IMG/VR virus record: IMGVR_UViG_3300022198_002714
Coordinates: 25,753 to 89,752 of that record
Direction: 5' to 3' (one strand)
DNA: 64,000 nucleotides
Origin: a virus
The notes beneath the pieces are model-generated. The model had not been told where the DNA came from, did no database searches, and worked only from the letters and a program-made list of their open reading frames with translations. Shown here one piece after another: positions 10,162-59,659 of this stretch (its first letter is position 1; every line of letters starts with the position of its first letter). Both the position numbers and the translations under genes were made by a program.

Positions 10162-11328
10162 TCACTTCAGGTCACGGATGGAAGCGTGACCACCAAAGAA
10201 AGTGGTCCACAACTCACCCATGGTGCGGTACATGCCTTCCTGACCCAGCCTGTTGATGGCGAAGGGGTCGCCCGTCTCGATGCCGGACTCGAAGTACTGA
10301 GTCGGGATGGCGGTGGAGAAGTACAGGTAGTCCGTGTCGAGGAAGTACATGCGGGACAGGGTGTCCTTTGCAACGTCCTTGGAGGGGATGATGGGAATAC
10401 CGTTGTAGGTCGCCACGATGAAACCGGCCTCGATACCGGGCACACCCTTCACACCGTTGTAGGTGGGGGTGACACGCTTTTCCTCAAGGAACCGCTGCTG
10501 CGACTGCAAGAGTTGCTGCAAGCGCATGAGGGTGTCGTAGCCCGTCAGGATGACCTTGGGGTTGCCACCGCGCTCCCACGTCAGGCGGAAGATTTCATCG
10601 AGGTGGTCGAGGGACAGAACACGGTCCGTACCCTTGGTACCGGAGGTGCTGACTTCGGCGTGGGACCAAGCGTTTGCGTCACGGTTAATCGAGTACATGT
10701 CTTCGTCACCGGCTTCTCCGTAGTCACCGGCTGCCCCACCAAAGTCCATGGTGTTCGCCACGTTACCGGATGCCGTGATAGCACCCGCCGTCACACGGTC
10801 GAGCGACTCAAAGTCGTTCCCGGCAACGGTCGTCACGTCCTCGGTGAGCATCTTGTTGATGTGTTCTGCGTGGTGCTTGCCCATCTCTTCCTTCAGCACG
10901 GCGCGAATGTCACCGAGGCCGTCGTCCTTGTCAGCAAGGAACATCGCCGTCTCCGACATGTCGAAGGTGTGCGCGATGGTCTTGGGCTTCGCAGCAATGT
11001 GTTGGAAGGTCGGCTTGGTGGTGTCGGGGAGAGTCGAGTTCTCCGCGAGGCCACCGCCCTTGGCGAAGGAGGGACGCTCCGTGATGACGCGCCACCCGCT
11101 GCGCTCCCAAGGCCGCTTGGGGAGGATGGAGAAGGCGTTGAACTCTTGGTTGAGTTGGCTCCACACCTTGCGGCCATAGATGGCCTGATAGATACCCGCC
11201 GTGGTGGAGAGCATCGGTGCGTCAGCCTTCAAGAGTTCGCTGCCGGAGTAAGAGTACCCCATGGCGTTTCCTGCGCCATAGAAGTACCGCTCCATGTCGG
11301 TAATTGTCCTGATGTAGTCACGTGCCAT
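10162..11328 (-). CDS. HK97-fold major capsid protein
   Basis: 388 residues from the ATG at 11328 (MARDYIRTITDMERYFYG), chosen because AAAGGAGTGAATGAA precedes it. The order of elements fits the HK97 fold: an N-terminal arm, an E-loop region with WRVITERPSFAKGGG, a spine helix region, and a late P-domain strand block GIEAGFIVATYNGIPIIPSK. It follows the protease-scaffold gene directly, as expected. It is the main shell protein of the virion. The family call is by pattern and gene order. Confidence 0.85.
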   Translation of the reverse strand: MARDYIRTITDMERYFYGAGNAMGYSYSGSELLKADAPMLSTTAGIYQAIYGRKVWSQLNQEFNAFSILPKRPWERSGWRVITERPSFAKGGGLAENSTLPDTTKPTFQHIAAKPKTIAHTFDMSETAMFLADKDDGLGDIRAVLKEEMGKHHAEHINKMLTEDVTTVAGNDFESLDRVTAGAITASGNVANTMDFGGAAGDYGEAGDEDMYSINRDANAWSHAEVSTSGTKGTDRVLSLDHLDEIFRLTWERGGNPKVILTGYDTLMRLQQLLQSQQRFLEEKRVTPTYNGVKGVPGIEAGFIVATYNGIPIIPSKDVAKDTLSRMYFLDTDYLYFSTAIPTQYFESGIETGDPFAINRLGQEGMYRTMGELWTTFFGGHASIRDLK

Positions 11329-11354
11329 TTCATTCACTCCTTTGTTTGATTCCT

Positions 11355-12728
11355 TCACTCACCCCGGACCGCTCGGCCCGCGAGGGTGTGAACTTCGTCC
11401 CACGACATGTTCGCAAGGTCGCCCGTGGTGGGGACCTCGACCTTCGTGGAGGACTTTGCAATGGTGGTGCCAACCGCAACGCTGCCGGTGGACAGGTTGT
11501 CGAGGCGGTCACTCAGCGACTCAATGGACTTGAGAACCTGAGCGAGAGGGGCACGCGGGTCAAAGTTGTCGCGCTCGACCTGAGCCTTGGCAATCTGCAT
11601 CTCCTGAGAGAAGCGGGAAGAGAACTGCTGCTCAAGGTTGCCACGGAAGGCCTGCTCAAGAGCAGCGGCCTTGTACACTTCGTAGGCAGCCTCAATGTCG
11701 GAGTCGGAAGCCGAGGTGACGTAGGACTTGCCGAGTTGGACAGGTCCAAGGGCACCGGAGGGTTCTCGACCGCCGCCGGAGGTGAGGGCGGAGATGGCAC
11801 CCGTGGAGGGGCTACCCTTCTCCTGACCGCGACCGCGAACCTGACCGGCAAAGTAGTCGGCACCGTCCACGGAGTCGGGGTTGTCAAAACCGCCCATCTG
11901 AGCCTTCGACATTTGGTCGAAGTGCAGTCGGGCCGCGTGGGTGTCAACACCCGCGCTCTTCAGCGTGTCTTCCATCCATGAGAGGTATTCAGCGGTGATA
12001 ACGTCGCTGTATTCTCCCTTTTCCATATCTTCAGGCATGTCTTCGTCCTCCTTGTTGTCTTTTTGGGACTCTTTTTCTTCGGAGTCCTTGGACTCCTTCT
12101 TTCCTTCCTTCATGCTCTCACGGAGAGCAGGAGGAAGTTCGCCCTTTTCCATCGCATCGAGGCGGGCTTCAAGTCGGCTCATAATGTCGGTCAAATCGTT
12201 GTCTGCACTCATAGTGGTGTCCTCCTTTAAGATGCTGAACTGCGCTTCAGGGTTAATCCCCTTCTCGCAAATCGTAATCTCATGGAGTTCCATTTTGGAG
12301 ATTTCCTGATAATCTCCGTGGATTGAGTCAGACTTGCGAACACGCTTGAACGCCTGACCCCCAATAGAGAAGCCACGCAAGTTGCCCTTGCGGATTTCCG
12401 CAGCAACCTCACGGGCCTTCTCAATGTCGTTGCGGAGTTGCACAACGACGAACATGCCGGTGTCGTCACACTCAGACTTCCACATGCGACCGTTGGAGTC
12501 CACGTAGGAGTCAATGACTTCACCGACTTGAATGTTGGAGTGAGCGAGTTGCACGTTGCGGTACTTGTCGCTCTTCATAAAACCATCAAAGGCATCCTTG
12601 AGGGCACTCCGCGTAATGAGGTCGCCCTGCTTATCCACCAATTCGACGGAAGCATAGCCCGCAACCACAAGGTCAGACCCGCTCTTCAGGAGCGAGAGTC
12701 CGACTTCAGGTCGCTGAACCGTAAGCAT
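11355..12728 (-). CDS. Prohead protease fused to scaffold
   Basis: 457 residues. Residues ~25-165 match the serine prohead protease family (HK97 gp4-like): DKQGDLITRSALKDAF, a catalytic His in NVQLAHSN, the Ser motif LRGFSIGG, and MELHEITICEKGINPEAQF. The rest is a long charged helical region (Lys/Glu-rich, then coiled-coil) ending in NMSWDEVHTLAGRAVRG, typical of a scaffold that is cleaved during maturation. The C-terminal block is shared with the protein at 19225-19563. It lies immediately upstream of the capsid gene. Confidence 0.85.
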   Translation of the reverse strand: MLTVQRPEVGLSLLKSGSDLVVAGYASVELVDKQGDLITRSALKDAFDGFMKSDKYRNVQLAHSNIQVGEVIDSYVDSNGRMWKSECDDTGMFVVVQLRNDIEKAREVAAEIRKGNLRGFSIGGQAFKRVRKSDSIHGDYQEISKMELHEITICEKGINPEAQFSILKEDTTMSADNDLTDIMSRLEARLDAMEKGELPPALRESMKEGKKESKDSEEKESQKDNKEDEDMPEDMEKGEYSDVITAEYLSWMEDTLKSAGVDTHAARLHFDQMSKAQMGGFDNPDSVDGADYFAGQVRGRGQEKGSPSTGAISALTSGGGREPSGALGPVQLGKSYVTSASDSDIEAAYEVYKAAALEQAFRGNLEQQFSSRFSQEMQIAKAQVERDNFDPRAPLAQVLKSIESLSDRLDNLSTGSVAVGTTIAKSSTKVEVPTTGDLANMSWDEVHTLAGRAVRGE

Positions 12729-19968: not shown

Positions 19969-21738
19969 TTAGGCACCGCGAGGCCTTCGGGCGTTCATCA
20001 GCGCATTGCTGACGTTTTCTTGTAGGTTAGGCTGCGGACCCCGTTGTTGAACGCTACTAAACGGTGCGCCGCTACCAACCACGGTCCTTCGCTCAGGCGC
20101 AGCAGGCCCTCGATTACGCAGACCAACACCTTGACCACCGGGTTGAGGTGGCGGCATTGGCATGCCCGGAGGCATTCCACCAACCATTTGCGGTGGCATA
20201 CCCGGAGGCATACCCGGAGGCATACCCGGAGGCATACCCGGAGGCATACCCGGAGGCATACCCGGAGGCATGCCCGGAGGTGCGCCACCCGGAGGCATAC
20301 CCGGCATGCCTTGTTGTGGCTGCGGTTGTGGCTTGCGGTACACAAAGCGAATGTCGCGGTTAGAGGGGTCCTCAAGCAGTTCCGGTTGGAAGCCCAACTG
20401 AGCCATGCGTTGAGCGACGTTGAGTTCTTGTTCGTCACGACGGAGACGGGTAATTTCGTCTTCTTCCTCGTTGGGGTACAAGGTGAGTTTCCAATCGTTG
20501 ACGTTCATCTGTTTAAGCAGACGAGGAAACAGAACATCTGTGTACACCTTTTGACCGTACTCAACTGCACGGTTGGTGACAAGAATCTGCATACCTTCAT
20601 TGTTCAGTCCACCGGACTTGCCGGTGTCCACCATGAAGATGCTTGAAACGCCATAGAATGCGGCAATTCTGTTGCGAATCTCGTCACGGACCGGAATGTA
20701 TTGCATTTCCTCCAAGGTGTCCATGAACTTGACCCAATTCACGCCACCCTTGCCGGTTTGCGATTCAATACCAACACGGGGAATGTAGTGGGGGTCACGC
20801 TCCATCTTCTCGTCAACGGACTTCCAAAATGACTTCATGGACTCAAGATTGTCCGTAGTCACCGAGATGATACCCTTGGGCATCCGTCGCTTTTGATAGG
20901 CCGTGTACATGTAATTGTCCATAGCCGTGAGCGTCATGGCTTGACGCCACATGGTGTTGACGGGACTGCGACCGTACAACTTTGACGGAGTGTACTTGCT
21001 GACGTGAATTACTTCACCTTCAACGAAGTACTGCGTCTTTCCGCTACCGGCCATGTTGACGTAGTGAACGTCTTCAAGGTCACGACCACAGTTCTCGCAC
21101 ACCTTGTCGTCAGCATGCGTCTTCACTTCGTCACGATGGATGATGCAGACTTTGAATCGGCCACCGCGCACACCACGTTTGTCGGCCACAATCCGCATGA
21201 AGATGGGGTCACCGCGAACCATCTCCTTGACACGATAAAACGCAATCTCCTTGCTTTCAGGGTCAATGAAGTATTCTTTGACCAAGATGAGGAAAGCGTC
21301 ATCCACGATATTGAGGTCATTCTCAACTTCATGAAGCAGATGGACAAAAGATTGTTCCATCGAGTTTTCCTGTTTGAGCAACCATTTTGGGTACGTCAAC
21401 TCATCAGGGTCAGGCTTGCGCACTTCGCCACCGCATTGCTTGCAGGATTCCATTTCCTGTTGGTATTCTTCATCGCACACCGTACATTTGACTGTGAACT
21501 TCTTTTCCCAATAGTAGCCGCGACGAAACATCTCCTGACGCAACTTGGAAAGAACGGTGCGCAAAATTAGCGACTCGTTGCTGACTGCATAAAGCGCAGG
21601 GATGGTGATGCCCTGAGCCATTACGGGTTCCTGAATGCCGCTTGACCACAACGGCATGGTCGGCGTAGGAGACTCACGCGACTTGAACGGGCTACGAAGG
21701 CCTGACAGGAACCGAGAAATGCGTCCTTCTTCTGCCAT
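19969..21738 (-). CDS. Portal protein with zinc-ribbon insertions and PGMP repeat tail
   Basis: 589 residues from ATG 21738 ([14 protein letters not shown]); GGAGGGGC lies six bases upstream, while an ATG three bases earlier is less well spaced. The central region ([20 protein letters not shown], then [15 protein letters not shown], and [18 protein letters not shown]) follows the portal pattern of phage genomes. Two cysteine clusters are unusual: CTVC...CKQC near residue 60 and CIIH...CENC near residue 210. The C-terminus has tandem PGMP repeats, then an Arg-rich end. The portal forms the DNA-entry ring. Confidence 0.85.
20197..20286. repeat. 12-bp tandem repeat encoding PGMP
   Basis: About seven tandem copies of GGCATACCCGGA (plus strand) with few changes. 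On the minus strand they encode repeated Met-Pro-Pro-Gly units in the portal C-terminal region. Such arrays expand and contract by slippage, so length is likely to vary between strains. Confidence 0.9.
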
Positions 21739-23045
21739 CATAGCCCCTCCGCGTATGCACCTATGGTATCGGCATCAATTCCCCACTTATCAAGAAGCCC
21801 GTTGGCTTTCACCGTATGGTCCTTCCAATTTGAAAAGGTGACAAGTCGGTACAATTCCTGCTTTCGCATAAAATCATCTTCATCCACATACGATAGCATG
21901 GCTCTTGCTTGTGTGGTCTTGAGCATCATGTGAGGAAGTGTAGCCTTAAGGACACGGCGAATGTCGTCCTTGCGTGAAAAAATAAGTCGGTGTACACTCT
22001 TCTTGGTGTTGTGAGACACCTTTTGGTCCGTGACAAGACGACCACATCCGGTAGCCTTGTGCAAGTCTTCGCACAGTTGTTTTCCTGAATCGCCACTTGC
22101 TACAAAGGTCACACGGGGGTCACCGCGTTCGCTGATAAAAATACTGCCGTCAGAATCGAGTGAACCCGCCATGTACGCCCAAATGTCCTTGATGATGAAT
22201 CCATCACGACCTAAAAGAACGTAGTCACCACGTGATGTACTTTTGAAGATGTTTAATTCTTCACCGTACATTTTGAGCAGCGCACCCATTCGTTGCGCCG
22301 TCATGTTGCGGTCCAACGTGTCTGCACCACGGCGAAGCAACTCTCGGCTGCTTAAGTGTCCATGAGCCTGCAACTCTTCTGCTGCAAAGTACAGGGCATC
22401 TTGTTCTGCTTTGTTCAGCGTGTCCACTTGATGCAGTACATTTTGCCACATTTTGCGAGCATCTTTCTGCAATTGCATAGCGTCAACCCACGATTGTTGG
22501 TCGTTTTCATCCCAATCCACTTTGTCGTTGAGCATTTGCAACACGGTGTTGGCCTTGAGGAATTGATGACAAGCCTTTTGCAACGACACGCTACGGTTTT
22601 CACCAAACTTTCGCAACGCCTTGAGGCTGCGGTCGGATAGCCCCATCTGTTTAATCACACTCTCCATGCCTTCAGCCCACGACAGATTGTTGATGGTCGC
22701 TTCAACCTCCATGGCCTTCAGTTGTCGAACAAGTCCAATCGTTTCGTCGTATTCGTCACGGTTGTCTTTGTCGTGCCGCCGCATCTTGCGACACTCACGA
22801 ATAATGGTGTCAGCATCCTTGCCCCAATACGTTTCAAGCCATCCGTCACCGTTCTTTGGAAACTCGCGCTTTCGCAGGTCTTCTTTGATAAATACAGTTG
22901 AGGTGGTTTGCAGCGGCAAATCGTTCTCATTGAACATAGGATGCTGAGAAAGCGCGTTGAGTACCATTTTTGTCAAGGGGTCTTCAACGACCATGGGCAC
23001 GTCGTACACGTCACCCACCAATGCACTCCCCCACATAATGACCAC
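21738..23045 (-). CDS. LAGLIDADG-like homing endonuclease domain fused to unknown N-terminal region
   Basis: 435 residues, GTG at 23045 or ATG at 23036. Residues ~280-400 (DIWAYMAGSLDSDGSIFISE, then FVASGD, LHKATGCGRLV and KSVHRLIFSRKDDIRRVL) match a single LAGLIDADG-type domain. The diagnostic helix is AYMAGSLDSDG with its acidic residue, and the region around HMMLKTTQARAML is also typical. The first ~270 residues are helical and unrecognised. It lies between terminase and portal with no sign of an intron or intein, so it is either a free-standing homing endonuclease or a domain reused for packaging. Confidence 0.65.
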   Translation of the reverse strand: MVIMWGSALVGDVYDVPMVVEDPLTKMVLNALSQHPMFNENDLPLQTTSTVFIKEDLRKREFPKNGDGWLETYWGKDADTIIRECRKMRRHDKDNRDEYDETIGLVRQLKAMEVEATINNLSWAEGMESVIKQMGLSDRSLKALRKFGENRSVSLQKACHQFLKANTVLQMLNDKVDWDENDQQSWVDAMQLQKDARKMWQNVLHQVDTLNKAEQDALYFAAEELQAHGHLSSRELLRRGADTLDRNMTAQRMGALLKMYGEELNIFKSTSRGDYVLLGRDGFIIKDIWAYMAGSLDSDGSIFISERGDPRVTFVASGDSGKQLCEDLHKATGCGRLVTDQKVSHNTKKSVHRLIFSRKDDIRRVLKATLPHMMLKTTQARAMLSYVDEDDFMRKQELYRLVTFSNWKDHTVKANGLLDKWGIDADTIGAYAEGL

Positions 23046-23089: not shown

Positions 23090-24577
23090 TCAGGGGGTAA
23101 GCCATCCATCAAAGCCTCCTTTTTCTTCCTGATTACCACCACTAAGCCAATCGGCAAATCCGGGCATGTAGTCGTCAAGCATAACAAGCGAGCCACGGAA
23201 CTCCTTGGTACCCCAATTCGCCAAAGCAAGGGCCATTGCCAAGTCGTCGTGCGTACCCACGCTTTCCAACTTCCCGTTTTTCTGCATGCCGAAACGGTTG
23301 AGTTCTTGCTCCAACTTGTGCGTGAACTCACGGCTCCGCTCATCCCCATAGGGTGTGCGAATCTGACCTTGCTCAAACGCCATGAGCAAGGACATGAACA
23401 TGGATTCCTTACGCTGACGGGTGGTCATGAACGTCTTGATGGGAATGTCGTTGCGCATGTCTTGCAGTTCAGCAGCAAACATGCGTTGGAAGTTGTTTCC
23501 TTCAAGTTCAATCAAATCAGGTTGGAAGCGGTTGTTCATCATCAGGATTTGCCGTTTCTGCGCAGCACCGCTCATTCCACGTTCGTGATGCGCACCAATG
23601 ATTTGTTTGGTACCGTCATCGGGTAACGTACGTAACACAAGCATAGCGGTAAAGTCAGCGTTCTTGTCCGAGGCAATAGCCGTGTCCCATCCGATGAAAT
23701 GCTGACCAAAGATGCCTGTTGATTCACCTTCTTCGTCGTATTCCATTTCAGCGCGGTCAAGCAACACAAGTTCCTTGTCCCTTGCTTTTTCAAGAATGTC
23801 GTTGGGAAACATACTCGCAACGTCGTGAATCGGCTCGCACAGGTATTCACGGGAGAATTGAATAGCAGGCATGGAAAGTCGCCGTTGGTCAAGCGATTCC
23901 AAATCCCATCGCTCAGGCCACAGGGCTTTTCCTTCGTTGTTGATGGCAGGGTAGGTTTCAACGGTGAATGCCTCACGTTGCTCAAGTTCTGCGTACAGGT
24001 CGTTGTACGAAAAAGGTGTACCAACAATCATCATGCGACCGGAGTGGTGCAGCACAGGAAGCAGCACACCATAGAACCAATCAGCAGCACGTTGCAATTC
24101 AGTACCGGTCGTACCCCACAGAATGTCGTCGCACACAACCACGTTCGGGTGGAAACCACGGGTACCACCACCCACGGACTTTGCCATCATACGGCTTCCG
24201 TTTGCAAAGTCAAAGTAGGTTTTTCGCCACGGTCGCCCTTCGGGAATAAGGTGTTTCAGACACGGGGTGGTTTCGATGTTGTTGCGAATGAACCGCATGT
24301 GTTCAAGCGTCTGCTCAAGTGAGTGGCTGAAAATCATGATGTGAGTGTTGGGTTGAAACGCCGCAATCCACAGGGCATAGGACATGAAAAACACGGACTT
24401 GCCGTGGTCACGGCTTGCTTTGACACAGTAGTAGCGGTTGTCACTCAACCCTTTGTCCCAACATTCGTGATGGAACGAATAGTCATAGCCAAGAATCTCG
24501 GTGAAGAAGTACCTGAAGGACTTGGCCGACATTTCACGGTCCATCTCAAGGATGAACTGATTCATGTCTTCCTTCAT
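23090..24577 (-). CDS. terL: Terminase large subunit
   Basis: 495 residues. The ATPase domain shows a Walker A-like KASRDHGKS (~residue 54), Walker B VVVCDD, and coupling motif VGTPF. The C-terminal nuclease domain has GWDTAIASDKNADFTAM, LEGNNFQRMFAAEL and the late acidic HDDLAMALA. This enzyme pumps DNA into the prohead and cuts it at headful. The ATG at 24577 overlaps the stop of the preceding gene; an in-frame ATG four codons later is also possible. The order terminase, LAGLIDADG protein, portal is clear. Confidence 0.95.
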   Translation of the reverse strand: MKEDMNQFILEMDREMSAKSFRYFFTEILGYDYSFHHECWDKGLSDNRYYCVKASRDHGKSVFFMSYALWIAAFQPNTHIMIFSHSLEQTLEHMRFIRNNIETTPCLKHLIPEGRPWRKTYFDFANGSRMMAKSVGGGTRGFHPNVVVCDDILWGTTGTELQRAADWFYGVLLPVLHHSGRMMIVGTPFSYNDLYAELEQREAFTVETYPAINNEGKALWPERWDLESLDQRRLSMPAIQFSREYLCEPIHDVASMFPNDILEKARDKELVLLDRAEMEYDEEGESTGIFGQHFIGWDTAIASDKNADFTAMLVLRTLPDDGTKQIIGAHHERGMSGAAQKRQILMMNNRFQPDLIELEGNNFQRMFAAELQDMRNDIPIKTFMTTRQRKESMFMSLLMAFEQGQIRTPYGDERSREFTHKLEQELNRFGMQKNGKLESVGTHDDLAMALALANWGTKEFRGSLVMLDDYMPGFADWLSGGNQEEKGGFDGWLTP

Positions 24578-29472: not shown

Positions 29473-30209
29473 CACTCCACCCCCATGTTCTCCATCAATT
29501 GCGCCTTAAGTCGCGCCCATACTTCAGGACTCTCCTTGCTCAATTCGACTTGCAAGATGTTGAAGGTCTGATTGACCTGCTGCGTGTCGCTTTGCGCACC
29601 CCATTGGTCTTGGAATCGAAGCAGGTCTTTGACTGTTTCACGAACTTCTTTGTGCAGCGACACCGCATCGCGCACGAAACCGTCTTCGTGAACGCTACCT
29701 TCGTCAAGCAATTCGCTCAACTTGTGGTTGAGCCGCTCAGCGTTGCTTCGCAACAAATCAATCTCGGTCCCTGCACGCAGGGCGACTTCGATGGCAGCCG
29801 TCTTTTGCACAAGCGGCTGAAAATGATTCTTCATGTGTTGATAGACCACGTTTTCGCTGACTTCTAATTCCTGAGCAATAAGGTCGCTATTGCCTGTGTT
29901 AAAGTACATCTCTTCGTAGGCCGCACGCTGATGAGACGTACAGACAGGACAACCGGAGTTGGATGCGAGGTGAAACTCGCCCATGTGGTTGCGGTAGTGC
30001 CGCTCGGTGGTGTTGCTTCGCCACTCCTTGTCTTTGTCCAACTGCTTTGGTGAAATGTGACCGTCGAGTAGGCCTTGTTCAAGCCCATCCCGTTCTTCGT
30101 CCATGCAGAAAGCGCATGACCGTTTGTACACACGGTCGTCGCTCATGTGCATTCTTAAGTGAGTCTGCTTCAAAAGCGTTCTGTCATCGAATGATGCGAG
30201 CATACACAC
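29472..30209 (-). CDS. Double zinc-finger/HTH protein, candidate small terminase
   Basis: 245 residues. Two related units each have a CxxC, a helix pair and a histidine-rich end: CAFC...RHYRNHMGEFH and CPVC...LEVSENVVYQHMKNHF. The second contains a good HTH pattern (SDLIAQELEVSENVVYQHM). A long coiled coil follows (RSNAERLNHKLSELL, then LHKEVRETVKDLL), which is the layout of small terminase subunits: DNA-binding domain then oligomerisation helices. It lies two genes upstream of the large terminase. A start further in, near 30150, is possible because the first 26 bases overlap the previous gene. Confidence 0.5.
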   Translation of the reverse strand: MCMLASFDDRTLLKQTHLRMHMSDDRVYKRSCAFCMDEERDGLEQGLLDGHISPKQLDKDKEWRSNTTERHYRNHMGEFHLASNSGCPVCTSHQRAAYEEMYFNTGNSDLIAQELEVSENVVYQHMKNHFQPLVQKTAAIEVALRAGTEIDLLRSNAERLNHKLSELLDEGSVHEDGFVRDAVSLHKEVRETVKDLLRFQDQWGAQSDTQQVNQTFNILQVELSKESPEVWARLKAQLMENMGVE

Positions 30210-32166: not shown

Positions 32167-32883
32167 TCACACCGTCAACAGGTTGACCATTGTTGGTTCC
32201 ACGTTCCATCCAATTCGGGTCGCCATAAACGACCTGCGGGTTGGAATACCCGCTTTTTGCAAGCGAATAAGGTCATCTCGGAAGGGGTCGAAGATAGGAT
32301 GCTCTCCAATTCGCCCTTCAGCGTACAATTTGGCCGCAGTATCGTCAAAATACCGGTCAGCCTTGTTTGCAACAAGCATAATCAGACTTGGAGCGTATGA
32401 TTTACCGTTCCATCGGCTTTTGAGTGTCCGATATCGGTAATTTCGACCCGTAATTGCGTCAACAAGGAAGCGAAAGCCTGCAATTTGCTGAATGGCATCG
32501 TTTCCGCCCTTAATTGCTCGGTCATCAAACAAATAGACGACTGCACGGACTTGCCGGGACACCATATCGTCAATCCACAGGTTCCAAAACCGTTCTTGAC
32601 CACCAACGTCGGCAGAAAACACAACACGCTTCTCGCCTTCCCAACTTACACGCTTGCGAGAAGGTTTTGGCAGCAGGTAACGCCCGAGAATCTTGACATG
32701 TTCGGTCCGTTCCTCTTCAGGAATCTCTTCCATTTCCCCCGGAGTGGTCATGTAGCGGTCAAGGGTGGTTTTGCCGGTCAGTCCTGCACCGTAAATGCCG
32801 ACTTTGCGCGGCCTCCACGAATTGTACAGGCTCTTGCCCCACACCATTGCACCGACCAATGCGGTTCCCGCAGGCTCAACCAT
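32167..32883 (-). CDS. Arf-like small GTPase
   Basis: 238 residues with clear GTPase signatures: G1 GAGLTGKT (residues 32-39), G3 DVGGQE (92-97, the Arf-type form), G4 NKAD (173-176), and a possible G5 FMATRI. The core is preceded by a hydrophobic stretch (GTALVGAMVWGKSLYN). Arf/Ras-like switches bind GTP and change partners; in viruses they are very rare. Here it is flanked by two membrane proteins upstream and an AbrB-like protein downstream, all in one operon, so it may work at a membrane. Confidence 0.8.
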   Translation of the reverse strand: MVEPAGTALVGAMVWGKSLYNSWRPRKVGIYGAGLTGKTTLDRYMTTPGEMEEIPEEERTEHVKILGRYLLPKPSRKRVSWEGEKRVVFSADVGGQERFWNLWIDDMVSRQVRAVVYLFDDRAIKGGNDAIQQIAGFRFLVDAITGRNYRYRTLKSRWNGKSYAPSLIMLVANKADRYFDDTAAKLYAEGRIGEHPIFDPFRDDLIRLQKAGIPTRRSFMATRIGWNVEPTMVNLLTV

Positions 32884-33138: not shown

Positions 33139-33702
33139 TCACTCGTCGTTTCTATACCGCTTGTCAGGCGTGCCGTCTTTTTTCAACGGCACTTCTTCCT
33201 TGACGCCAAGATTGACAGGTTGATTGACTTCAGCAGTATGCTTGGGTGCGCCTGTCATTTGTGCCATGTCGTACTGACTCACCAACGACGGTGCGCCTCC
33301 TTGGACACCCCAACTTGGAGGCATCTGACCGGGGTTGGCTTCCATCCACCGCAGTTCACGCTCAAGTTGGGCTTCCTGCATCCGCAGTTCCATCTCAGCG
33401 CGTCGGTTGTCGAAGGTGTTCTGCATGTTGCGGAAACGGTACTGCCGCTCTCGCTCCATGTTGGTTGCCGCAACACGTTCCTGCATGTTCTGCTCAAAGA
33501 ACATCTTGAACACGTAGTAGGCAACGCCCTGCACAAAGAATGCGGCCATGGCGTAGGTGAAACCGTTCACCCACGCATCATCGTTGTTCAGCCACATGCC
33601 TGCATCAAACAGGCCAATGGCAAGTCCGACAAGGGCTGACTGCGAGATAATCAGACCCATCAGACGAATCTCGGCTTCGTTGGACTGAGGCATAGAGGAC
33701 AT
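33139..33702 (-). CDS. Membrane protein with coiled-coil domain
   Basis: 187 residues. Two membrane spans (LIISQSALVGLAIGLFDAGM and FTYAMAAFFVQGVAYYVFKM) are followed by a charged coiled coil (AEMELRMQEAQLERELRWME) and a polar tail. It is the first gene of the unit that includes a second membrane protein and the GTPase. It begins just downstream of the long inverted-repeat element at 33753-33908, which probably holds its control region. Confidence 0.6.
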   Translation of the reverse strand: MSSMPQSNEAEIRLMGLIISQSALVGLAIGLFDAGMWLNNDDAWVNGFTYAMAAFFVQGVAYYVFKMFFEQNMQERVAATNMERERQYRFRNMQNTFDNRRAEMELRMQEAQLERELRWMEANPGQMPPSWGVQGGAPSLVSQYDMAQMTGAPKHTAEVNQPVNLGVKEEVPLKKDGTPDKRYRNDE

Positions 33703-33752: not shown

Positions 33753-33908
33753 TAGTCACTTTTGTCACCACTTACTTCACCAAAATGAGTATTCACCATT
33801 GTACTCTTACACTCTCTCTATTTATTGAGAGTAGTACCTATGAAATAATGACAACTCGTTTTGTCATTTACATGAGTAAGGTGGTGACAAAAGTGACAAA
33901 AGTGACTA
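33753..33908. repeat. Long inverted-repeat element, copy 1
   Basis: Noncoding. Left arm from 33753 (TAGTCACTTTTGTCACCACT) pairs with the right arm ending at 33908, which has an extra TTTTGTCAC unit. Inside are two further hairpins: ACTCTC...GAGAGT (33811-33832) and ATGACAA-CTCGTT-TTGTCAT (33848-33867). A related element with the same layout but different arm sequence is at 43139-43308. Confidence 0.8.
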
Positions 33909-35438
33909 CTCCACTTTGTCAATCTGCCTCAACGTACCACGATTCTTGAAATGACGGGCACGGTTGTCGTGTTCACTTTCGAGGGTCAGTTTGTTACCTT
34001 GAGTGTGGCTCACGTCCATGTGGTCGTGGCTTCCCATAATTCCACGGCGACGACGCTCACGGTTGAGTTCTTCACGGTACTTGACGCGCTCAGGAGAAGA
34101 TTCGTACTGTTTGTCGTATTCCAACTTGTGCCGCATGGCTTCGGGACTTACACGCTCTTTGAGCAACCGCATAGCGATGTCCATTGGTTCGCCTGTTTGA
34201 ACTTCTTGTGGTGTATAATATACAGAATAAATAGTAGGGTTTTCTTCCGTACCCCATTTACCTCTATGAATAGGGGTCGCTCCCTGCCTTTTATCAAAGT
34301 CATCCCACACCTCTTGGTGCAATTGTTCGGCTGAGCAATTAGGATTTATTGATAGATTGCACATATCAGTAAATCCTTCAAAATGAACAGTATGGTCACC
34401 TAATCTTTCAACACCTGTATCATCCGGTGTTAATTGATTAAGAAATGCCTCAACATGTTGTAGTGGGTTATCATCTTTAAGCAGACGGAAGGCCAAGTCC
34501 ATTGGACTTGCACTCATCTGAATGTCACCATACTGCGGTTGCGACATGTCAAAGCCCTGTCCAACTTGCTTTGCAGCCATGGCAGGATGCATGCCGCCCT
34601 GCACAAGTTGCGTAAATTGGTCGTAGTGCATAGGGTGAACGTCGTACATGTTTGCCGTGTTGAGTTCAAACTGCTCTCGCGCAGGAGCGGTGGGGTCACG
34701 CGCGTACTGCAAAATCTGCTGAAGTTCGTCCTGTGGTGGGGGACGAGGTTCTTGATATGACATGTTGGTACCGCTTACTCCGGTTTTTCGCCTTAAATTG
34801 AGCAACAATTCTTCCAATTCGTCACTTTTAGGTTGGCTTTCAGTCCTTGTAGGCCCTCCAATCAAAACAGGTAAAGCATCAGCAGCAATTTTTTTCTGTG
34901 CATAAGTACTCAAATGGTCCAAAGGAGTACGATAACCGAAGTTTTCATACGGATTTTTCAAACTACTAAAGGTGGTACCTACACTACTGTCATAGAGTTC
35001 GGCTTTTTCCGGCTCAACATACCTTGACAAAAAATTGGACATTGCTTGCCTCATTGCATCACGGTATTGTTTTGCATTTGCTTCTTGCAATTCTTTTTCC
35101 TTTGCTTCTATGTCCAAAGTGTAATCTGCGTTTTGCAAAGCATCAAGCGTAGCACGCCAATTTTTCATCGCTTTAGACTGTTCACGAAGTGCTTGCTGCG
35201 ATGGAAGCATCCTTTCAGTTTCCGGCGTGGTCACCAAAGGCTCAAACTTGGATGACAAATCTTGGACTGAAACATCTTTCTGATTTATGCGGTCTCTAAA
35301 CACTCCATTAGTTGCTTGCGCCGATAAGTCGTTTTGTGCGTAAATAGCCTGAAGGAGAGCCTTTAGGCGGGCAACGTGTTCGTCAGATGATAGGGGCATC
35401 TGTGCCGCATCAGCAAGTTTCTCGCTAAATGAAGGCAT
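33906..35438 (-). CDS. Late protein with two docking motifs
   Basis: 510 residues from the ATG at 35438 (MPSFSEKLADAAQM). It contains SASPMDLAFRLLKDD (~residue 310) and TGEPMDIAMRLLKERV (~425). Both follow the P-M-D-[L/I]-A-x-R-LLK form of the recurrent motif. The N-terminal third is helical and rich in Gln/Ala/Lys; the middle has a Cys/His-containing stretch (MCNLSINPNCSAEQLHQEVW). The C-terminus has a basic RELNRERRRRG helix. No family was recognised; probably virion-internal. Confidence 0.5.
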   Translation of the reverse strand: MPSFSEKLADAAQMPLSSDEHVARLKALLQAIYAQNDLSAQATNGVFRDRINQKDVSVQDLSSKFEPLVTTPETERMLPSQQALREQSKAMKNWRATLDALQNADYTLDIEAKEKELQEANAKQYRDAMRQAMSNFLSRYVEPEKAELYDSSVGTTFSSLKNPYENFGYRTPLDHLSTYAQKKIAADALPVLIGGPTRTESQPKSDELEELLLNLRRKTGVSGTNMSYQEPRPPPQDELQQILQYARDPTAPAREQFELNTANMYDVHPMHYDQFTQLVQGGMHPAMAAKQVGQGFDMSQPQYGDIQMSASPMDLAFRLLKDDNPLQHVEAFLNQLTPDDTGVERLGDHTVHFEGFTDMCNLSINPNCSAEQLHQEVWDDFDKRQGATPIHRGKWGTEENPTIYSVYYTPQEVQTGEPMDIAMRLLKERVSPEAMRHKLEYDKQYESSPERVKYREELNRERRRRGIMGSHDHMDVSHTQGNKLTLESEHDNRARHFKNRGTLRQIDKVE

Positions 35439-35439
35439 A

Positions 35440-36765
35440 TCAATACGTCCTAAGTTTCTTGTACGCAGCAAGCGCAGATTCTATCATTTCAGGAGACAAT
35501 TTATCCAAACCTTGTGGGAACGAGCCATGCCTCATGATACCAAGTGGTGTGTTACTGTATATTGCTTTTGATGCCAACTGACCCGGAATGAACTCTATAT
35601 TCGATGTAATCTCTTTAACCGATTTATCGTCTGCCTGACGCCTCATAGCATCAATCAACTCAAGTTTTTCTTCGGTCGTCATCTCACGACCTCCGGGTTG
35701 AAGGGGAAAACCTTCCTTGTCGTACGCTCCTTCAAGTGCAGGATGAATGGCGGACATTGGAAATTGCGAAGCGTATTCTCGCCATGCTGCTTGTTGTGGA
35801 CTGACTATTGTTTTGTAAGGATTATCCCTTCTATCAAGCGGATTCAATCTTCGTAGCCTCTCTTCAATTGCTGTTGGCTGCATTCGTTCATATGTCATCC
35901 AATCCGTATCTTCAGACTTAATTCTCCAATTTGTTGCATTAGGCGTATCGCTTTTCCATGAACCACTTGCACGTAAAGGCGTCAAACGACTGTTATCAAT
36001 GGGTGTCATCGCTACGTATTCGGCGGACTCACCCCCCTTGAATCGTGGCCGTTCTTGTACCAAATCTCCGGGGTAAAACCCAAGGCCGCGAACGCCAAAC
36101 AGATTTTCTTTCTTTTCAGAAAGAACCTCATTCATTTCTTTTACATTGGGTGGAACAAGAAACTGCATGGGCATGCCTTCTTCTGTCTTATATCTGTAAG
36201 GTAAAGGGTTGCTCACGTTTTCCTCATAAGAACCAACGTAACTTCGTCCACTCATAGGGATGAGTTGACCACCGGGAGTGGTCATGACACGCGATGCAAT
36301 GTCTCCTGTGAAGCGGTATGCGTTGATGGGTGGGATTGAGCCGGGAATTACCGTGTTGGTCTGCGGGTCAAGCCACCGCTCGGTGGTCAAACCCGGAATC
36401 AGTTGCGGTAGTTTCATCTGCGTGGTAAAACGCACGTTGGGCGGGCTTTCCCTACCGGCTTCCCAAAGCATACTGTTTGGGTCAAAATCAGCCTGAGCAT
36501 TCGCTTCGCCTATGTTGAGAATATCTCTCACGGTATTACCGTAAGTGTAGCCAAAATCCGGACGGCGGGTAAAATCATCAGGGTCAATTGAGTCTTCATA
36601 CACCGTTTCCATGGTCGGAAACTCAAGCGATTCAGTAGGAACGTGAATGGGACCTAAGTACTCACCCCTGTACCTGTTGCGCGGATTTTCAGGAAAACCA
36701 AAGTCGCCGGTAAGGGTCGTTTGCCGCTTCAGCAAACGCCATGCCGACTCCATTGGGTCCAACAC
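35440..36765 (-). CDS. Late protein with N-terminal docking motif
   Basis: About 441 residues; GTG at 36765 or TTG at 36762, after GAGGTGA. The very N-terminus is LDPMESAWRLLKRQTTLTG, an exact motif copy, followed by a Tyr/Pro/Asn-rich domain without recognisable family and a helical C-terminus (PEMIESALAAYKKLRTY). N-terminal placement of the motif resembles capsid-targeting tags. It is one of a row of such genes. Confidence 0.5.
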   Translation of the reverse strand: MLDPMESAWRLLKRQTTLTGDFGFPENPRNRYRGEYLGPIHVPTESLEFPTMETVYEDSIDPDDFTRRPDFGYTYGNTVRDILNIGEANAQADFDPNSMLWEAGRESPPNVRFTTQMKLPQLIPGLTTERWLDPQTNTVIPGSIPPINAYRFTGDIASRVMTTPGGQLIPMSGRSYVGSYEENVSNPLPYRYKTEEGMPMQFLVPPNVKEMNEVLSEKKENLFGVRGLGFYPGDLVQERPRFKGGESAEYVAMTPIDNSRLTPLRASGSWKSDTPNATNWRIKSEDTDWMTYERMQPTAIEERLRRLNPLDRRDNPYKTIVSPQQAAWREYASQFPMSAIHPALEGAYDKEGFPLQPGGREMTTEEKLELIDAMRRQADDKSVKEITSNIEFIPGQLASKAIYSNTPLGIMRHGSFPQGLDKLSPEMIESALAAYKKLRTY

Positions 36766-36766
36766 T

Positions 36767-37714
36767 TCACCTCAGCATTTTGAGCATGCGCCATGCAAGG
36801 TCCATTGGATGCCCGGTTTGCACGGTACCGTTCATCTCGTCCCAAACACGTTGTTCGTACTGACGCTGAAGGACTGAAGGATGGGTCTGAGGGTTTGCAA
36901 TCTGCTTGTTTTCCAAGAAAACTTCACCGGTATCGGGGCACGAAATGGTGTGCATCTGCCCCAAGTAGTCGTGACCGGGCACAAGGGGTTGCGATTCAAT
37001 GGTCAAGTCGCTTGGTCGAGGCTGACCTTGCAGGCTACGCATAGTACGCTGCTTGTCGGCTTCTTCTTGCGCAAGTCGCTTCGCATTGTTAGCCACTTTT
37101 GTTTCATAGGCACGCCTGCCTGCGTCCGAGCGCACCTGTGCAGCCTCTTGAGCAAGCCGCTGCCGCTGCATCTCAATGGCCTCACCCATACCGCGCTGCT
37201 CTTCGTTGGTCAACACGGTTGGACTGTTAACCTTGGTTGTGGCAATGTTTTGCTTGACTTGCTGTTCGGTTTGCCACTCTTCGTCGGTTTGCTCTTTTTC
37301 ACGGAAGTTCTTCTTGCTACTTGAGGGAGCCATCATTTCAAACTCGCGCTCGTAATCCTTTTTGGCCTGTACGGGCTTCTTGATGGTTGAAGCAATGGGC
37401 TTGACTATTCTTTGCTGCTCGAACCGCTTCTCCTTGGCCTTCTGTTGATTGTGCCGTTTGGCTTTTAACATCAACAAAAAATCCCATGCAAGGTCCATTG
37501 GCTCGCCGGTCTGAATCTCAGCACCCTGCTTGGCCTGTTCAGCGGCCTGTTGCGCTTCGGCTACCTGTTGGTCCTTGCGCTTTTCACCGCCCATCATTGC
37601 ACCAAGGCCTGATGTTGCCGCACCAATCGCGGCTTGACCCTGTGGGCTTGCAGCAGCAGTAGCCGCTTTACCGGCAGCAGCGGCAATCGGTGCAGCAACC
37701 GCAGGCAAAGGCAT
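36767..37714 (-). CDS. Ala/Gln-rich protein with internal and C-terminal docking motifs
   Basis: 315 residues beginning MPLPAVAAPIAAAAGKAATA, a low-complexity hydrophobic Ala-rich start resembling phage DNA-ejection proteins. The motif occurs as TGEPMDLAWDFLLMLKAK (~residue 70) and exactly at the end as TGHPMDLAWRMLKMLR. Between them is a very basic/Gln-rich coiled coil and a short CPDTGEVF stretch. An ejection or internal capsid protein is plausible but unproven. Confidence 0.5.
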   Translation of the reverse strand: MPLPAVAAPIAAAAGKAATAAASPQGQAAIGAATSGLGAMMGGEKRKDQQVAEAQQAAEQAKQGAEIQTGEPMDLAWDFLLMLKAKRHNQQKAKEKRFEQQRIVKPIASTIKKPVQAKKDYEREFEMMAPSSSKKNFREKEQTDEEWQTEQQVKQNIATTKVNSPTVLTNEEQRGMGEAIEMQRQRLAQEAAQVRSDAGRRAYETKVANNAKRLAQEEADKQRTMRSLQGQPRPSDLTIESQPLVPGHDYLGQMHTISCPDTGEVFLENKQIANPQTHPSVLQRQYEQRVWDEMNGTVQTGHPMDLAWRMLKMLR

Positions 37715-37739: not shown

Positions 37740-38585
37740 TCAACAATGCGTAGTGCAGACTTCCGGCTGAGGGTTCCGCAATCCGTACGCCAATTCGCTT
37801 GCTGAGCGCAGTAATCCAGTATCTATGCCGGTTTTGAAACCCCATGCGTGCAAATGATTCACAAGCGTTTCAGTTGACAAATTGGCTCCGCTGCCTTTAG
37901 CAAACGGGCAACCGCCGAGTCCGCCGATGCTGCTATCGAACTCAGTCACACCTTCAAGCAACGCTTTGCGCACCAACATGAGCGCACGCTCTTCCTTGTC
38001 ACGGTGGTGCAGGTGCAGCGCGACGTTCAATCCCTCATCGCGGGCCATTTCCACCATCCACGGCAATTCGTGCGGCGCAGCCGCGCCCACGGTGTCAGCA
38101 AAAACCACGGTGTTACCAAACATTTTGGCGTCACGTAAGCATGAGCGCATGGTGTTCTCGCTGACAAGCCCGCTATCAGGGCTACCAAACGCCATCGAGA
38201 GGTACACGCGCACGTTTTCCTTGGGTACATCTTGCATAAACGTGCGGTACCGTAGCACAATTTCATCCCGCGTAGCACGCATGTTGTTGAGGTTGAACGT
38301 CTCGCACGGCGAAAATACCACATTGATTTTTTCCACGCCGCAGGCTTTGGCTCGCTGCATGCCGTGTGCATTCATGACCAACGCCGAGCCACGACCGCTG
38401 AACACTTCTTCGCCGTTTGCCATCTGCGGCAGCAGTTTTGGATTCGGAAAACTAACCTCTTCGATGTTGTCGAATCCGGCCACGTACAGGCGGTGAATCA
38501 ATTCGCGCCGCTGCTCCACCGGCACCACGTGCGGCAGGGCTTGAAGTCCGTCTCTTGGGCCAACTTCGTACACCGTCACACGCAT
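37740..38585 (-). CDS. Hydroxymethylglutaryl-CoA-lyase-like protein (DRE-TIM family)
   Basis: 281 residues aligning over nearly full length with HMG-CoA lyase: YEVGPRDGLQ (residues ~6-15, metal and substrate residues), FADTVGAAAPHEL, a retained H-x-H pair in ALHLHHRD, and the signature GGLGGCPFAKGSGANLSTE with its cysteine. The family cleaves HMG-CoA to acetyl-CoA and acetoacetate, or does related aldol cleavages. Differences from the usual enzyme: the H-x-H-D is H-x-H-H, and a conserved Cys is Ser in MAFGSPDSG. It lacks the docking motif. It sits inside the late virion-gene run in the same direction, so it appears to be an auxiliary metabolic gene. Confidence 0.8.
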   Translation of the reverse strand: MRVTVYEVGPRDGLQALPHVVPVEQRRELIHRLYVAGFDNIEEVSFPNPKLLPQMANGEEVFSGRGSALVMNAHGMQRAKACGVEKINVVFSPCETFNLNNMRATRDEIVLRYRTFMQDVPKENVRVYLSMAFGSPDSGLVSENTMRSCLRDAKMFGNTVVFADTVGAAAPHELPWMVEMARDEGLNVALHLHHRDKEERALMLVRKALLEGVTEFDSSIGGLGGCPFAKGSGANLSTETLVNHLHAWGFKTGIDTGLLRSASELAYGLRNPQPEVCTTHC

Positions 38586-38622: not shown

Positions 38623-39294
38623 TCAGTTACCCCATAAGCGTTGCAAATACGCAATACGGTCATCACCGTCGGGGATTTTGATTTGCCCATCGTTTGAAAA
38701 TATGGTTTGTCGGTAATCGGGGTTAGTCTCAGGTTCCTGAAGAAGAGTATTTTTGGGAATAGATTCAACTTGATTTGTTGACTGTTCTTGTTGTATTGGC
38801 AACGCAATACGATGCGGGCCGCGTAAATCGCCCCATTTCAGTTCGGTACGATTAGGCATGTACGTTACTACATCAGACGGTAGCAACTCTTCCCTATCCG
38901 GTTTTTGCACAGTAACATCGCGTATGTTTTGACTCAAGTTTTGATGGAAAGGATTGGAGTTTTGGTTTCGCGCATCGCTTCTTATTCCATATCCATGATG
39001 AATCAGATTTTCAAGCAAGGCTCGGTAGTGTCCTTGTCTGCGTTGGCGAAGCGGAGTTCCCGCTTCACCAATTTGGTTGAGTTCATCACGTCTCAGTCTT
39101 TCAGGAAATGTGACGCTTGATAGGTGTTGTCCATCTTGACCAATCAATCTTGCTATGGTTTTTTGGTCATTCAATTCAATGTGTGAAGGAATAATTCGCT
39201 TTCTATGGAAGGAGTAAGGTAAAGGTGCATCCATAAAGTCCGACAATTTTTTTTGCCTTTTCAGCAAGAGCCAAGACTGCTCAAAAGGACTCAT
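38623..39294 (-). CDS. Late protein with N-terminal docking motif
   Basis: 223 residues from the ATG at 39294 (MSPFEQSWLLLKRQKKLSDF). This start puts the motif at the very N-terminus, as in the next two genes, and lies next to the previous stop; an upstream in-frame start would overlap that gene heavily. The rest is basic/Asn/Gln-rich with no recognised domain (LIGQDGQHLSSVTFPERLRR). Probably virion-internal. Confidence 0.55.
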   Translation of the reverse strand: MSPFEQSWLLLKRQKKLSDFMDAPLPYSFHRKRIIPSHIELNDQKTIARLIGQDGQHLSSVTFPERLRRDELNQIGEAGTPLRQRRQGHYRALLENLIHHGYGIRSDARNQNSNPFHQNLSQNIRDVTVQKPDREELLPSDVVTYMPNRTELKWGDLRGPHRIALPIQQEQSTNQVESIPKNTLLQEPETNPDYRQTIFSNDGQIKIPDGDDRIAYLQRLWGN

Positions 39295-39301
39295 ACAAAC
39301 A

Positions 39302-39784
39302 TCACCGGTTAGCCAAATAGTTAGCAAGTTCGTCAAAATATAGTTTGGCCTTCTCTTCGGATAGTTTAGGAAGTTTGTAGGTACCATCCAAAAGGCTACC
39401 CATAGCCCCGATTTCTTCTTCAAGTAAATCGGTAGGCGTCCTAAACTCCGCCAAGTCTTGCGCTTGCACAGGCTGAGCCGGTTGTGATTGGTACAGGTCA
39501 AGCCGCTCCCTACCCGCTTGGTCTTCCATCATTTCTTCCATCGTGTTGTACCGCCCTGCCATGGCTGCTTGACCCATTAGGTCTTGGTTTTGGGTGGTGG
39601 TTGGCCCCGTGGTCGGAACAGCAGCGCGGTACGTGTCGGATGGACGCGGGAAGAACTCTTGACCGGGATAATTTCGCACCGAGTATTGCTGACCGCCGAT
39701 TCGCGGCCTGCCATCAAGTCGGAAAATGGTGCGGTCGGTCAGTTGACTCTTGAGCAAGGACCATGCCTGCTCAAACGGCGTCAA
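39302..39784 (-). CDS. Small late protein with N-terminal docking motif
   Basis: 160 residues starting MTPFEQAWSLLKSQLTDRTI. After the motif comes a short Gly/Arg/Tyr-rich part (FRLDGRPRIGGQQYSVRNYP), then an acidic helical half ending AKLYFDELANYLANR. It overlaps the upstream gene by four bases. No family was recognised. It is a compact example of the motif-tagged late proteins. Confidence 0.55.
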   Translation of the reverse strand: MTPFEQAWSLLKSQLTDRTIFRLDGRPRIGGQQYSVRNYPGQEFFPRPSDTYRAAVPTTGPTTTQNQDLMGQAAMAGRYNTMEEMMEDQAGRERLDLYQSQPAQPVQAQDLAEFRTPTDLLEEEIGAMGSLLDGTYKLPKLSEEKAKLYFDELANYLANR

Positions 39785-40875
39785 AATCCTTGCCTCCGGG
39801 CCATTTCACGGTATGCTTGAATCATTGGCTGCGACATGCCGCGACGTGTTGACAGGTCTTGGTCACGAATATCGCGGAGTTTAGCATCAGACGTGTCCAT
39901 GGTTTGTGTACCAAACATGTCAGCAAGGATTTGCGCACGCATTTGCTTGGCGTCAAGTGGTGGAGTGGGCATACTAAACTCATTGCCATCTTCTTCCATT
40001 GGGTCATCCATTTCAGCCATCGGGCCGGAAGGTTCGTCCGGGTATTCAGGCACAAGACCGTACATTGGGTGTTCCTCAGCGGGATATTGGTTGTTCATGT
40101 GGTCGGCACCGCTACTTCGTTGCCGCTCGCCTGAGCCAATGTGTCGAATGTTTCCAATTGCCTTGGCGCGAGCCTTGTGCTTTTCGCCCAACTCTTGCAA
40201 CTGCTGCGTAAGCGAGTGGTGCGCACCTACTTCTCCTTGCAATTGTCTGAGTGCGTCTTGGACCGTTTCTTCGTAAAAGGCGTCTTGACGGCTCATTTCG
40301 GGGTTAAAGAAACCGGATGCAGCAATAGCATCTGCCACATTGTCGTCAACGATTTCAATATCTTGGTCGTGATAAGGGACAAGTTGAGACAATTGGCCTA
40401 TTTGTCGAATACGCCGCATATGCTCAGCATGACGATTGTTGTCTCGATTCATCACACGGTCTGCTTCTTTCAAGGATTTTAGCAAAGACCAAGCGTCAGC
40501 GAATGGGAGAGAGTCAAACGATGCGGTCTTCATGGTGTTTTTCGGGAATGGGTTCTCGGGCTTGCTGAAATCAAGTTGGCGGGGAGGGGAGGGCCTGTTG
40601 CCGCCACCCTGAGCAGTTGACATTAGGTTGCCGTGCATAACGGCCCCGTCGAGGGCGAAGTCGCCCATTTCATCTTTTTGATGTTGCATTGCTTCATCGG
40701 GTTCGTCCGGCATACCCTGCGTAAGAATCGGAGACAGATTCCGCTCAAGTAGTTCAAGTAGTTCGTAATCAGGCTCGTTATCCCATATGGCGCGTTGATG
40801 CTGACGCCGCAATTTTCCAATTTCAGACTGCAAGTTCTTACGTACAAGTGCATAAGCCTGCTGAAACGGTGTCAT
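39781..40875 (-). CDS. First late gene, two docking motifs
   Basis: 364 residues starting MTPFQQAYALVRKNLQSEIG, with a second motif copy DSLPFADAWSLLKSLKEAD near residue 120. The rest is acidic and Met/Gln-rich, with a helical segment QDALRQLQGEVGAHHSLTQQ. It is the first gene of the minus-strand block and is separated from the early side by the AT-tract region, so its promoter probably lies at 40890-40990. No family was recognised. Confidence 0.55.
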   Translation of the reverse strand: MTPFQQAYALVRKNLQSEIGKLRRQHQRAIWDNEPDYELLELLERNLSPILTQGMPDEPDEAMQHQKDEMGDFALDGAVMHGNLMSTAQGGGNRPSPPRQLDFSKPENPFPKNTMKTASFDSLPFADAWSLLKSLKEADRVMNRDNNRHAEHMRRIRQIGQLSQLVPYHDQDIEIVDDNVADAIAASGFFNPEMSRQDAFYEETVQDALRQLQGEVGAHHSLTQQLQELGEKHKARAKAIGNIRHIGSGERQRSSGADHMNNQYPAEEHPMYGLVPEYPDEPSGPMAEMDDPMEEDGNEFSMPTPPLDAKQMRAQILADMFGTQTMDTSDAKLRDIRDQDLSTRRGMSQPMIQAYREMARRQGF

Positions 40876-58810: not shown

Positions 58811-59126
58811 TGGCTTCCTCTCCATCGTAGCGCACACGCACAAGCCGGACCACCTGCTTGTTCGCGCTCGTAAGCGTGAACATCTTGAGTCGGTGTTTCC
58901 GAACGCAACCGTCTATGTTCTGCCTGACGCAGACTACCCGTACAGGGCTGACGTGCTGCGGAGTGACGTAGCGAATCGCTTGTTAGATGAGTGTAATACA
59001 ATTCAGTACAGTAATTTCAAGGGTTCTATTTTGGACGACGAATACCACGATGCATTGATGCAGATTTGGGGTCTGATGTGGAACTACGGGCTGAAGCATC
59101 GTCCTAAGCGGGGGGTGGAGGCATGA
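58791..59126 (+). CDS. Unrecognised early protein
   Basis: 111 residues from the GTG at 58791 with GGAGAGGATAATC upstream (a GTG at 58776 is possible). (M)WLNLSDGFLSIVAHTHKPDH begins with a strand-turn-strand. Overlaps the zinc-ribbon gene by 20 bases and the phosphatase gene by four. No domain was recognised. Confidence 0.5.
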   Translation: MWLNLSDGFLSIVAHTHKPDHLLVRARKREHLESVFPNATVYVLPDADYPYRADVLRSDVANRLLDECNTIQYSNFKGSILDDEYHDALMQIWGLMWNYGLKHRPKRGVEA

Positions 59127-59659
59127 AGAACACACCAATTGAACTGCCCGTTGGCTCGCTGACGATGTGTGACGTGAAGGACTTCCGTGATACGCTGAAG
59201 CGAAACCACACGGTCGTGACCCTATGCAAGTACCCTCCAACGTGGCACTCAAGCGACGACAACGACCGCTACCACTACTACTTCCGCTACTACAACGCTG
59301 ACCCTGAAGTGTGGGCAACCGCTGCCTTGGTGGTCTTCGACCTGATTCAACAGGGGCGTGATGTGCTGTTGCATTGTGTACACGGCAAGGACCGCACGGG
59401 TGGTGTGGCTTACGTTGCGCTTCGCTTGCATGGGTACAACCATGACGATGCGTGTGACGTGATGAAAGAGGCACGGCCTAAGATGCGCAAGCAATGGGAC
59501 GCTATTCTTGAAGAGCGAAAAGACATTCACGAAGCGGCGTACGACTCCGCAGGTGAAATGATTGACTCCTTGCCTGCATGTGCAGACCTACCGTGGTGGA
59601 CCACGTACTTTGCACATGAGGCACGGTCGGAGAAGGGGATTCCAATTGGAAGTATTTAA
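59123..59659 (+). CDS. Tyrosine/dual-specificity phosphatase-like protein
   Basis: 178 residues. The signature DVLLHCVHGKDRTGGVAYVA (~82-98) is a full H-C-x5-R-[S/T] phosphatase P-loop, with DLIQQGRD before it and the DDACDVMKEARPKMRKQWDA helix after, as in dual-specificity phosphatases. An upstream Asp in HSSDDNDRYHYY could be the general acid. Its stop codon is part of the TATA box of promoter P9. Second phosphatase of the window; the partner kinase-like gene is three genes upstream. Confidence 0.85.
   Translation: MKNTPIELPVGSLTMCDVKDFRDTLKRNHTVVTLCKYPPTWHSSDDNDRYHYYFRYYNADPEVWATAALVVFDLIQQGRDVLLHCVHGKDRTGGVAYVALRLHGYNHDDACDVMKEARPKMRKQWDAILEERKDIHEAAYDSAGEMIDSLPACADLPWWTTYFAHEARSEKGIPIGSI

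What the first reader, a model, noticed from the sequence alone, without database searches (positions are those of the whole stretch)
37740..38585. HMG-CoA-lyase-like gene embedded in the virion gene block
Near full-length agreement with HMG-CoA lyase (EVGPRDGLQ, DTVG, H-x-H, GLGGCPFAKGSG). Archaea use HMG-CoA for isoprenoid lipids through the mevalonate route, so a viral enzyme acting on it could redirect membrane-lipid or acetyl-CoA metabolism. Two active-site neighbours differ from the usual sequence (H-x-H-D is H-x-H-H; a conserved Cys is Ser), so the substrate may have changed.
Basis: partly seen in the sequence, partly recalled or inferred. Interest (0 to 1): 0.8.

Follow-up and report, generated by a model that had tools for sequence, protein, structure and literature searches.

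The report
HMG-CoA-lyase-like enzyme of archaeal viruses
A tailed virus of marine archaea carries an intact gene for an enzyme of the HMG-CoA lyase family; published work already reports such genes in this virus order, but here they prove to be one strongly conserved viral lineage with a changed edge of the active site.

Summary
Window 37740-38585 (-) is an intact 281-aa gene that matches HMG-CoA lyase far better than any other related enzyme; its AlphaFold2 model (pLDDT 95) lands first on solved HMG-CoA lyases. The record is an incomplete, magrovirus-like archaeal tailed virus. The gene is not confined to one assembly: at least 35 distinct homologues occur in related viral contigs. In 34 of 34 loci where it lies near a conserved GTPase-like gene it is on the same strand, 0.9-7.2 kb upstream; about 20 of 23 loci with enough sequence have it somewhere on the contig. 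The viral proteins form one clade (100/100) apart from bacterial and human enzymes; archaeal cellular enzymes could not be sampled. Known catalytic residues are kept in every viral copy, whereas the [D/N]-T after the metal-binding H-x-H is lost in all 36 (kept in 79 of 80 bacterial ones). dN/dS to the nearest relative is 0.03. So this is a selected, probably active acyl-CoA lyase, most likely splitting HMG-CoA late in infection; substrate and benefit are unproven. HMG-CoA lyase in magroviruses is already published (PMC10768690, PMC10160649), so novelty lies in detail only.

The parts
37740..38585 (-). HMG-CoA-lyase-like gene, 281 aa
   Evidence: NF004283 8.8e-59; AF2 pLDDT 95.4; best folds are HMG-CoA lyases
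38550..38555 (-). R11-D12 (human R41-D42), catalytic Arg and metal Asp
   Evidence: kept in 35/35 viral rows that cover it
38004..38015 (-). H191-L-H193-H194: metal-binding H-x-H, then the viral change of D/N to H
   Evidence: H-x-H 36/36 viral; D/N at the next place 0/36 viral against 79/80 bacterial
37881..37910 (-). C226 (human C266) to N235 (human N275), signature loop GGCPFAKGSGAN
   Evidence: both residues 36/36 viral
38623..39501 (-). upstream neighbour of unknown function, 38 bases before the lyase; homologue ends 4 bases inside the lyase ORF in L007
36767..37714 (-). downstream neighbour of unknown function, same order in L004
33139..33702 (-). conserved block gene, possible membrane protein
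   Evidence: downstream of the lyase in most loci; weak DUF350 match
32167..32883 (-). conserved GTPase-like gene used as independent anchor of the block
   Evidence: P-loop, D-x-GGQ and NKAD motifs; 34/34 lyases near it are on its strand
23090..24577 (-). terminase large subunit
   Evidence: phrog_38 9e-66
19969..21741 (-). portal protein, nearest to haloarchaeal viruses
   Evidence: phrog_18178 1.5e-70; halovirus portals 9e-56
11355..12728 (-). head maturation protease
   Evidence: phrog_23555 1.1e-13
10162..11358 (-). major head protein
   Evidence: phrog_24667 6.8e-58

Best explanation
The gene encodes a catalytically competent acyl-CoA lyase of the HMG-CoA lyase family (DRE-TIM metallolyases), carried as a host-metabolism gene by magrovirus-like tailed viruses of marine archaea. 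Shown by computation: family, fold, conserved catalytic set, a single viral clade, strong purifying selection, conserved place on the late-gene strand. Inferred: it is made with the virion proteins and cleaves host HMG-CoA to acetyl-CoA and acetoacetate. In an archaeon this would drain the precursor of the isoprenoid membrane lipids and return two-carbon units while particles are built. My estimates: active lyase about 0.8; HMG-CoA the main substrate about 0.6; draining the lipid pathway is the benefit about 0.35.
For: HMG-CoA lyase model 8.8e-59 with no close second. Profile of 35 viral proteins against human HMG-CoA lyase 1.7e-71, homocitrate synthase 9e-18. AF2 model pLDDT 95.4, best PDB folds HMG-CoA lyases, TM 0.83-0.89, then a drop to about 0.7 for isopropylmalate synthases. 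R41, D42, E72, D204, H233, H235, C266, N275 equivalents in every viral sequence that covers them. dN/dS 0.031 against L004. One viral clade 100/100. Same strand and place in 34/34 loci. No HMG-CoA synthase or reductase in 20 viral records, so the virus supplies only the draining step.
Against: Score below NF004283's curated cut-off. The [D/N]-T after H-x-H, N46-E47 and A272, near-universal in the bacterial set, are lost in most or all viral copies, which could change substrate or rate. No host enzyme or host genome could be compared; no expression data; some close relatives lack the gene.
Confidence: 0.6

Rival explanations
1. It is an acyl-CoA lyase that has moved to another substrate (another 3-hydroxy-acyl-CoA or a related ester), and the viral clade's shared changes around the active site reflect that.
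For: Clade-wide loss of [D/N]-T after H-x-H, of N46-E47 and of A272, with variable loop length after the second His. A solved member of the family, 6nds, is bound to CoA and 3-methylmalate, which hints at breadth in the family.
Against: All catalytic residues and the signature loop are kept in every viral copy. K48 is not fixed in bacterial members either (33/80). The lost positions are not known by me to select the acyl group.
Confidence: 0.22
2. It completes host leucine breakdown (HMG-CoA to acetyl-CoA and acetoacetate) to gain energy, as Xu et al. 2023 assigned it; lipid synthesis is not the target.
For: Published assignment. Same chemistry as the main reading.
Against: That assignment is a KEGG pathway label. 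Whether the hosts have the upstream leucine enzymes was not testable here.
Confidence: 0.25
3. The fold has been reused as a virion or assembly protein, with catalysis secondary or lost.
For: It sits among late genes and keeps its place.
Against: The invariant columns across viral and bacterial proteins are mostly the catalytic set. It lacks the short PMxxAWxLLK motif of its neighbours. It is missing from some relatives that keep the rest of the block.
Confidence: 0.07
4. Contamination or assembly artefact: a cellular gene joined to a viral contig.
For: None found; the only lyase hits in the annotated phage collection do look like bacterial chromosome.
Against: Independent contigs with shared viral gene order; single viral clade; presence in about 20 of 23 informative loci.
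Confidence: 0.01

Closest known systems
HMG-CoA lyase reported in Aoguangviridae and other magroviruses (PMC10768690; PMC10160649)
   Same: Same enzyme family, same kind of virus with PolB and chaperonin relatives, described there as modulating host metabolism or as a leucine-degradation AMG.
   Different: Those texts give no residue, position or phylogeny analysis in what I could read; the published records are not held here, so identity to them was not tested.
Bacterial and human HMG-CoA lyase (2cw6, 1ydn, 2ftp, 1ydo)
   Same: Fold, catalytic residues, signature loop.
   Different: About 35-40% identity; viral copies lack [D/N]-T after H-x-H, mostly lack N46-E47, and have S for A272 in most.
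Other DRE-TIM enzymes (homocitrate synthase, isopropylmalate synthase, citramalate synthase)
   Same: Barrel and metal site.
   Different: Far weaker in sequence and fold; they lack the HMG-CoA lyase loop.
HMGL-like protein of Klosneuvirus KNV1
   Same: The only high-scoring fold match among predicted viral structures (TM 0.87, 30% identity).
   Different: Giant virus of eukaryotes; not placed in the tree here.

Membership tests
HMG-CoA lyase (NF004283 / PF00682) | Sequence match to the family above its relatives | tested here: met
   8.8e-59 against 2.4e-6 for the next family
HMG-CoA lyase (NF004283 / PF00682) | Score over the curated cut-off of NF004283 | tested here: not met
   199 bits against 246; of the viral records tested two pass, G005 at 247.9 and G033 at 253.6. 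PF00682's own cut-off is passed
HMG-CoA lyase (NF004283 / PF00682) | Catalytic and metal residues R41, D42, E72, D204, H233, H235, C266, N275 | tested here: met
HMG-CoA lyase (NF004283 / PF00682) | H-x-H-[D/N]-T motif | tested here: not met
   0/36 viral, 79/80 bacterial at both positions; not a catalytic residue as far as I know
HMG-CoA lyase (NF004283 / PF00682) | TIM-barrel fold of the family | tested here: met
HMG-CoA lyase (NF004283 / PF00682) | Cleavage of HMG-CoA | not testable with these tools
   needs an assay
Magrovirales virus | Halovirus-related head and packaging genes | tested here: met
   portal matches only haloarchaeal viruses and viruses assigned to methanogen groups
Magrovirales virus | Family B DNA polymerase and chaperonin (as in Aoguangviridae) | tested here: inconclusive
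   chaperonin present but cut by the record's end; PolB not in this incomplete record, present in 11 of 20 lyase-bearing records
Magrovirales virus | Poseidoniales host | not testable with these tools
   no host link computed; taken from the literature on the order

The most novel reading that the evidence does not exclude
Magroviruses hold an old, virus-only branch of the HMG-CoA lyase family with a reworked active-site mouth, tuned to cut the archaeal isoprenoid-lipid supply (or a different acyl-CoA) during particle formation.
Probability: 0.25. Interest if true: 0.65.

Novelty: new member of a known kind. Interest (0 to 1): 0.42.

Why it matters
[quoted passage not shown] A lyase kept under strong selection in most of the related viruses sampled gives a concrete, assayable entry to how these viruses change host metabolism, possibly by cutting membrane-lipid synthesis at HMG-CoA.

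Tried and rejected
Single-assembly artefact or host contamination: rejected. Other aldolase family: rejected. Gapless alignment that would put R195 in place of the second metal His: rejected by the model's strand and the multiple alignments. The three hits in the annotated phage collection (two of them sister records) lie among bacterial-type metabolic genes and are not taken as viral relatives. The first tree held wrong-frame bacterial ORFs and was rebuilt with correct frames. Published magrovirus records OR863078, PP497040 and ON649702 are not held, nor is the main paper on Poseidoniales viruses.

Full report
What is there. The minus strand at 37740-38585 holds a 281-aa ORF with an ATG start. 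Library searches agree on the HMG-CoA lyase family: NCBIfam NF004283 8.8e-59 with the next family at 2.4e-6, Pfam PF00682 1e-21, PDB matches all HMG-CoA lyases. The score is below NF004283's curated cut-off, so the protein is a divergent member.

Where it is. The window is bases 25753-89752 of an 89,752-base virus record. The minus-strand block contains terminase and portal, head protease and major head protein and a weak tail-tube match. The portal's only matches among annotated phages are haloarchaeal viruses and viruses of methanogen-related groups. The record begins inside a chaperonin gene, so it is incomplete; that may be why PolB is not seen, while 11 of 20 lyase-bearing records have it and 22 of 23 records have the chaperonin. 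Halovirus-like structural genes, PolB, chaperonin and HMG-CoA lyase are what the ICTV profile gives for Aoguangviridae in the order Magrovirales (PMC10768690). I therefore call it magrovirus-like; the family within the order was not tested.

Relatives. A scan with the single protein found one near-identical relative, L004, 97% identical with the same downstream gene order. An alignment-based scan gave 31 viral loci, nearly all sharing other genes with this virus. A scan made independently with the neighbouring GTPase-like gene gave 80 loci, of which 34 contain the lyase. In all 34 it is on the same strand, 0.9-7.2 kb upstream of the GTPase-like gene. Of 23 loci with at least 9 kb upstream, 16 have it there. 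Four of the other seven (L142, L146, L151, L192) have it elsewhere on the contig, giving about 20 of 23; some of these contigs may be near-duplicates, so the number is rough. L132, L156 and L161 have none. In L012, L032 and L018 the gene sits between terminase and portal, and the tree still puts L012 and L018 in the viral clade.

Phylogeny. In a careful maximum-likelihood tree of 74 rows, 21 viral rows form one side of a branch at 100/100, against 53 cellular rows, and in all 200 bootstrap trees examined. Apart from the human row the cellular rows are bacterial. Archaeal cellular enzymes could not be sampled, so origin from the host is neither shown nor excluded, and 'virus-only clade' is conditional on that.

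Active site. In human numbering R41, D42, E72, D204, H233, H235, C266 and N275 are kept in every viral sequence that covers them; the roles of these residues are from my knowledge of the human enzyme. The AlphaFold2 model (pLDDT 95.4) matches HMG-CoA lyases first, and its strand 187-194 carries H191 and H193 two residues apart, so both can face the barrel as metal ligands do.

Selection. Between the window and L004, dN/dS is 0.031 for the lyase, 0.18 and 0.35 for the next two genes, 0.085 for 33139-33702 and 0.029 for the GTPase-like gene. Other close viral pairs give 0.06-0.25. The gene is under constraint of the kind expected of a working protein.

Mechanism. Most likely: expression with the virion genes, cleavage of HMG-CoA to acetyl-CoA and acetoacetate, loss of the isoprenoid-lipid precursor and gain of two-carbon units. 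Family and catalytic competence are well supported; substrate, timing and benefit are inferred. None of 20 viral records carries HMG-CoA synthase or reductase, so only the draining step is supplied. Xu et al. 2023 assigned magrovirus HMGCL to leucine degradation (PMC10160649); the chemistry is the same and sequence cannot decide between the two.

Novelty. HMG-CoA lyase in magroviruses is published. Xu et al. describe their AMGs as sporadic; here the gene is in most informative loci of this group. What this work adds is breadth, conserved position, a single viral clade, purifying selection and a clade-wide motif loss. I rate it a new member of a known kind, with moderate interest.

Noticed in passing
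window 7135-8487, 27472-29475, 33906-35471, 35440-36765, 36767-37714, 38623-39501, 39781-40875 (all -): A short motif P-[MF]-x-x-A-[WFY]-x-x-L (as in PMDLAWRMLK, PFEQSWLLLK) recurs 10 times in seven late genes; shuffled proteins give 0.13 on average, at most 2. Similar motifs occur in many related loci. It may be a shared targeting or processing tag of virion proteins.
   Followed up: partly
window 32167-32883 (-): Strongly conserved GTPase-like protein (P-loop GKTTLD, D-x-GGQ, NKAD) with no Pfam match and only faint Arf-like matches in the PDB; dN/dS 0.029.
   Followed up: partly
record G000 bases 21-791 (L002, outside the window): The record starts inside a chaperonin (Cpn60) gene, so the genome is incomplete.
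   Followed up: yes
L002 8688-19988 (-): A single ORF of 3766 aa in the late-gene strand, function not examined.
   Followed up: no
window 51242-52465 (+) and 59123-59659 (+): Two genes with matches to tyrosine phosphatase families, the first one weak and just under the cut-off.
   Followed up: no
phage records CAKLQH020000001.1 (L005), CAKLQF020000001.1 and MT836185.1 (L006): Records filed as phages whose lyase sits among bacterial-type acyl-CoA genes (carboxylases, CoA-transferase-like ORFs in L006); the stretches look like bacterial chromosome.
   Followed up: partly
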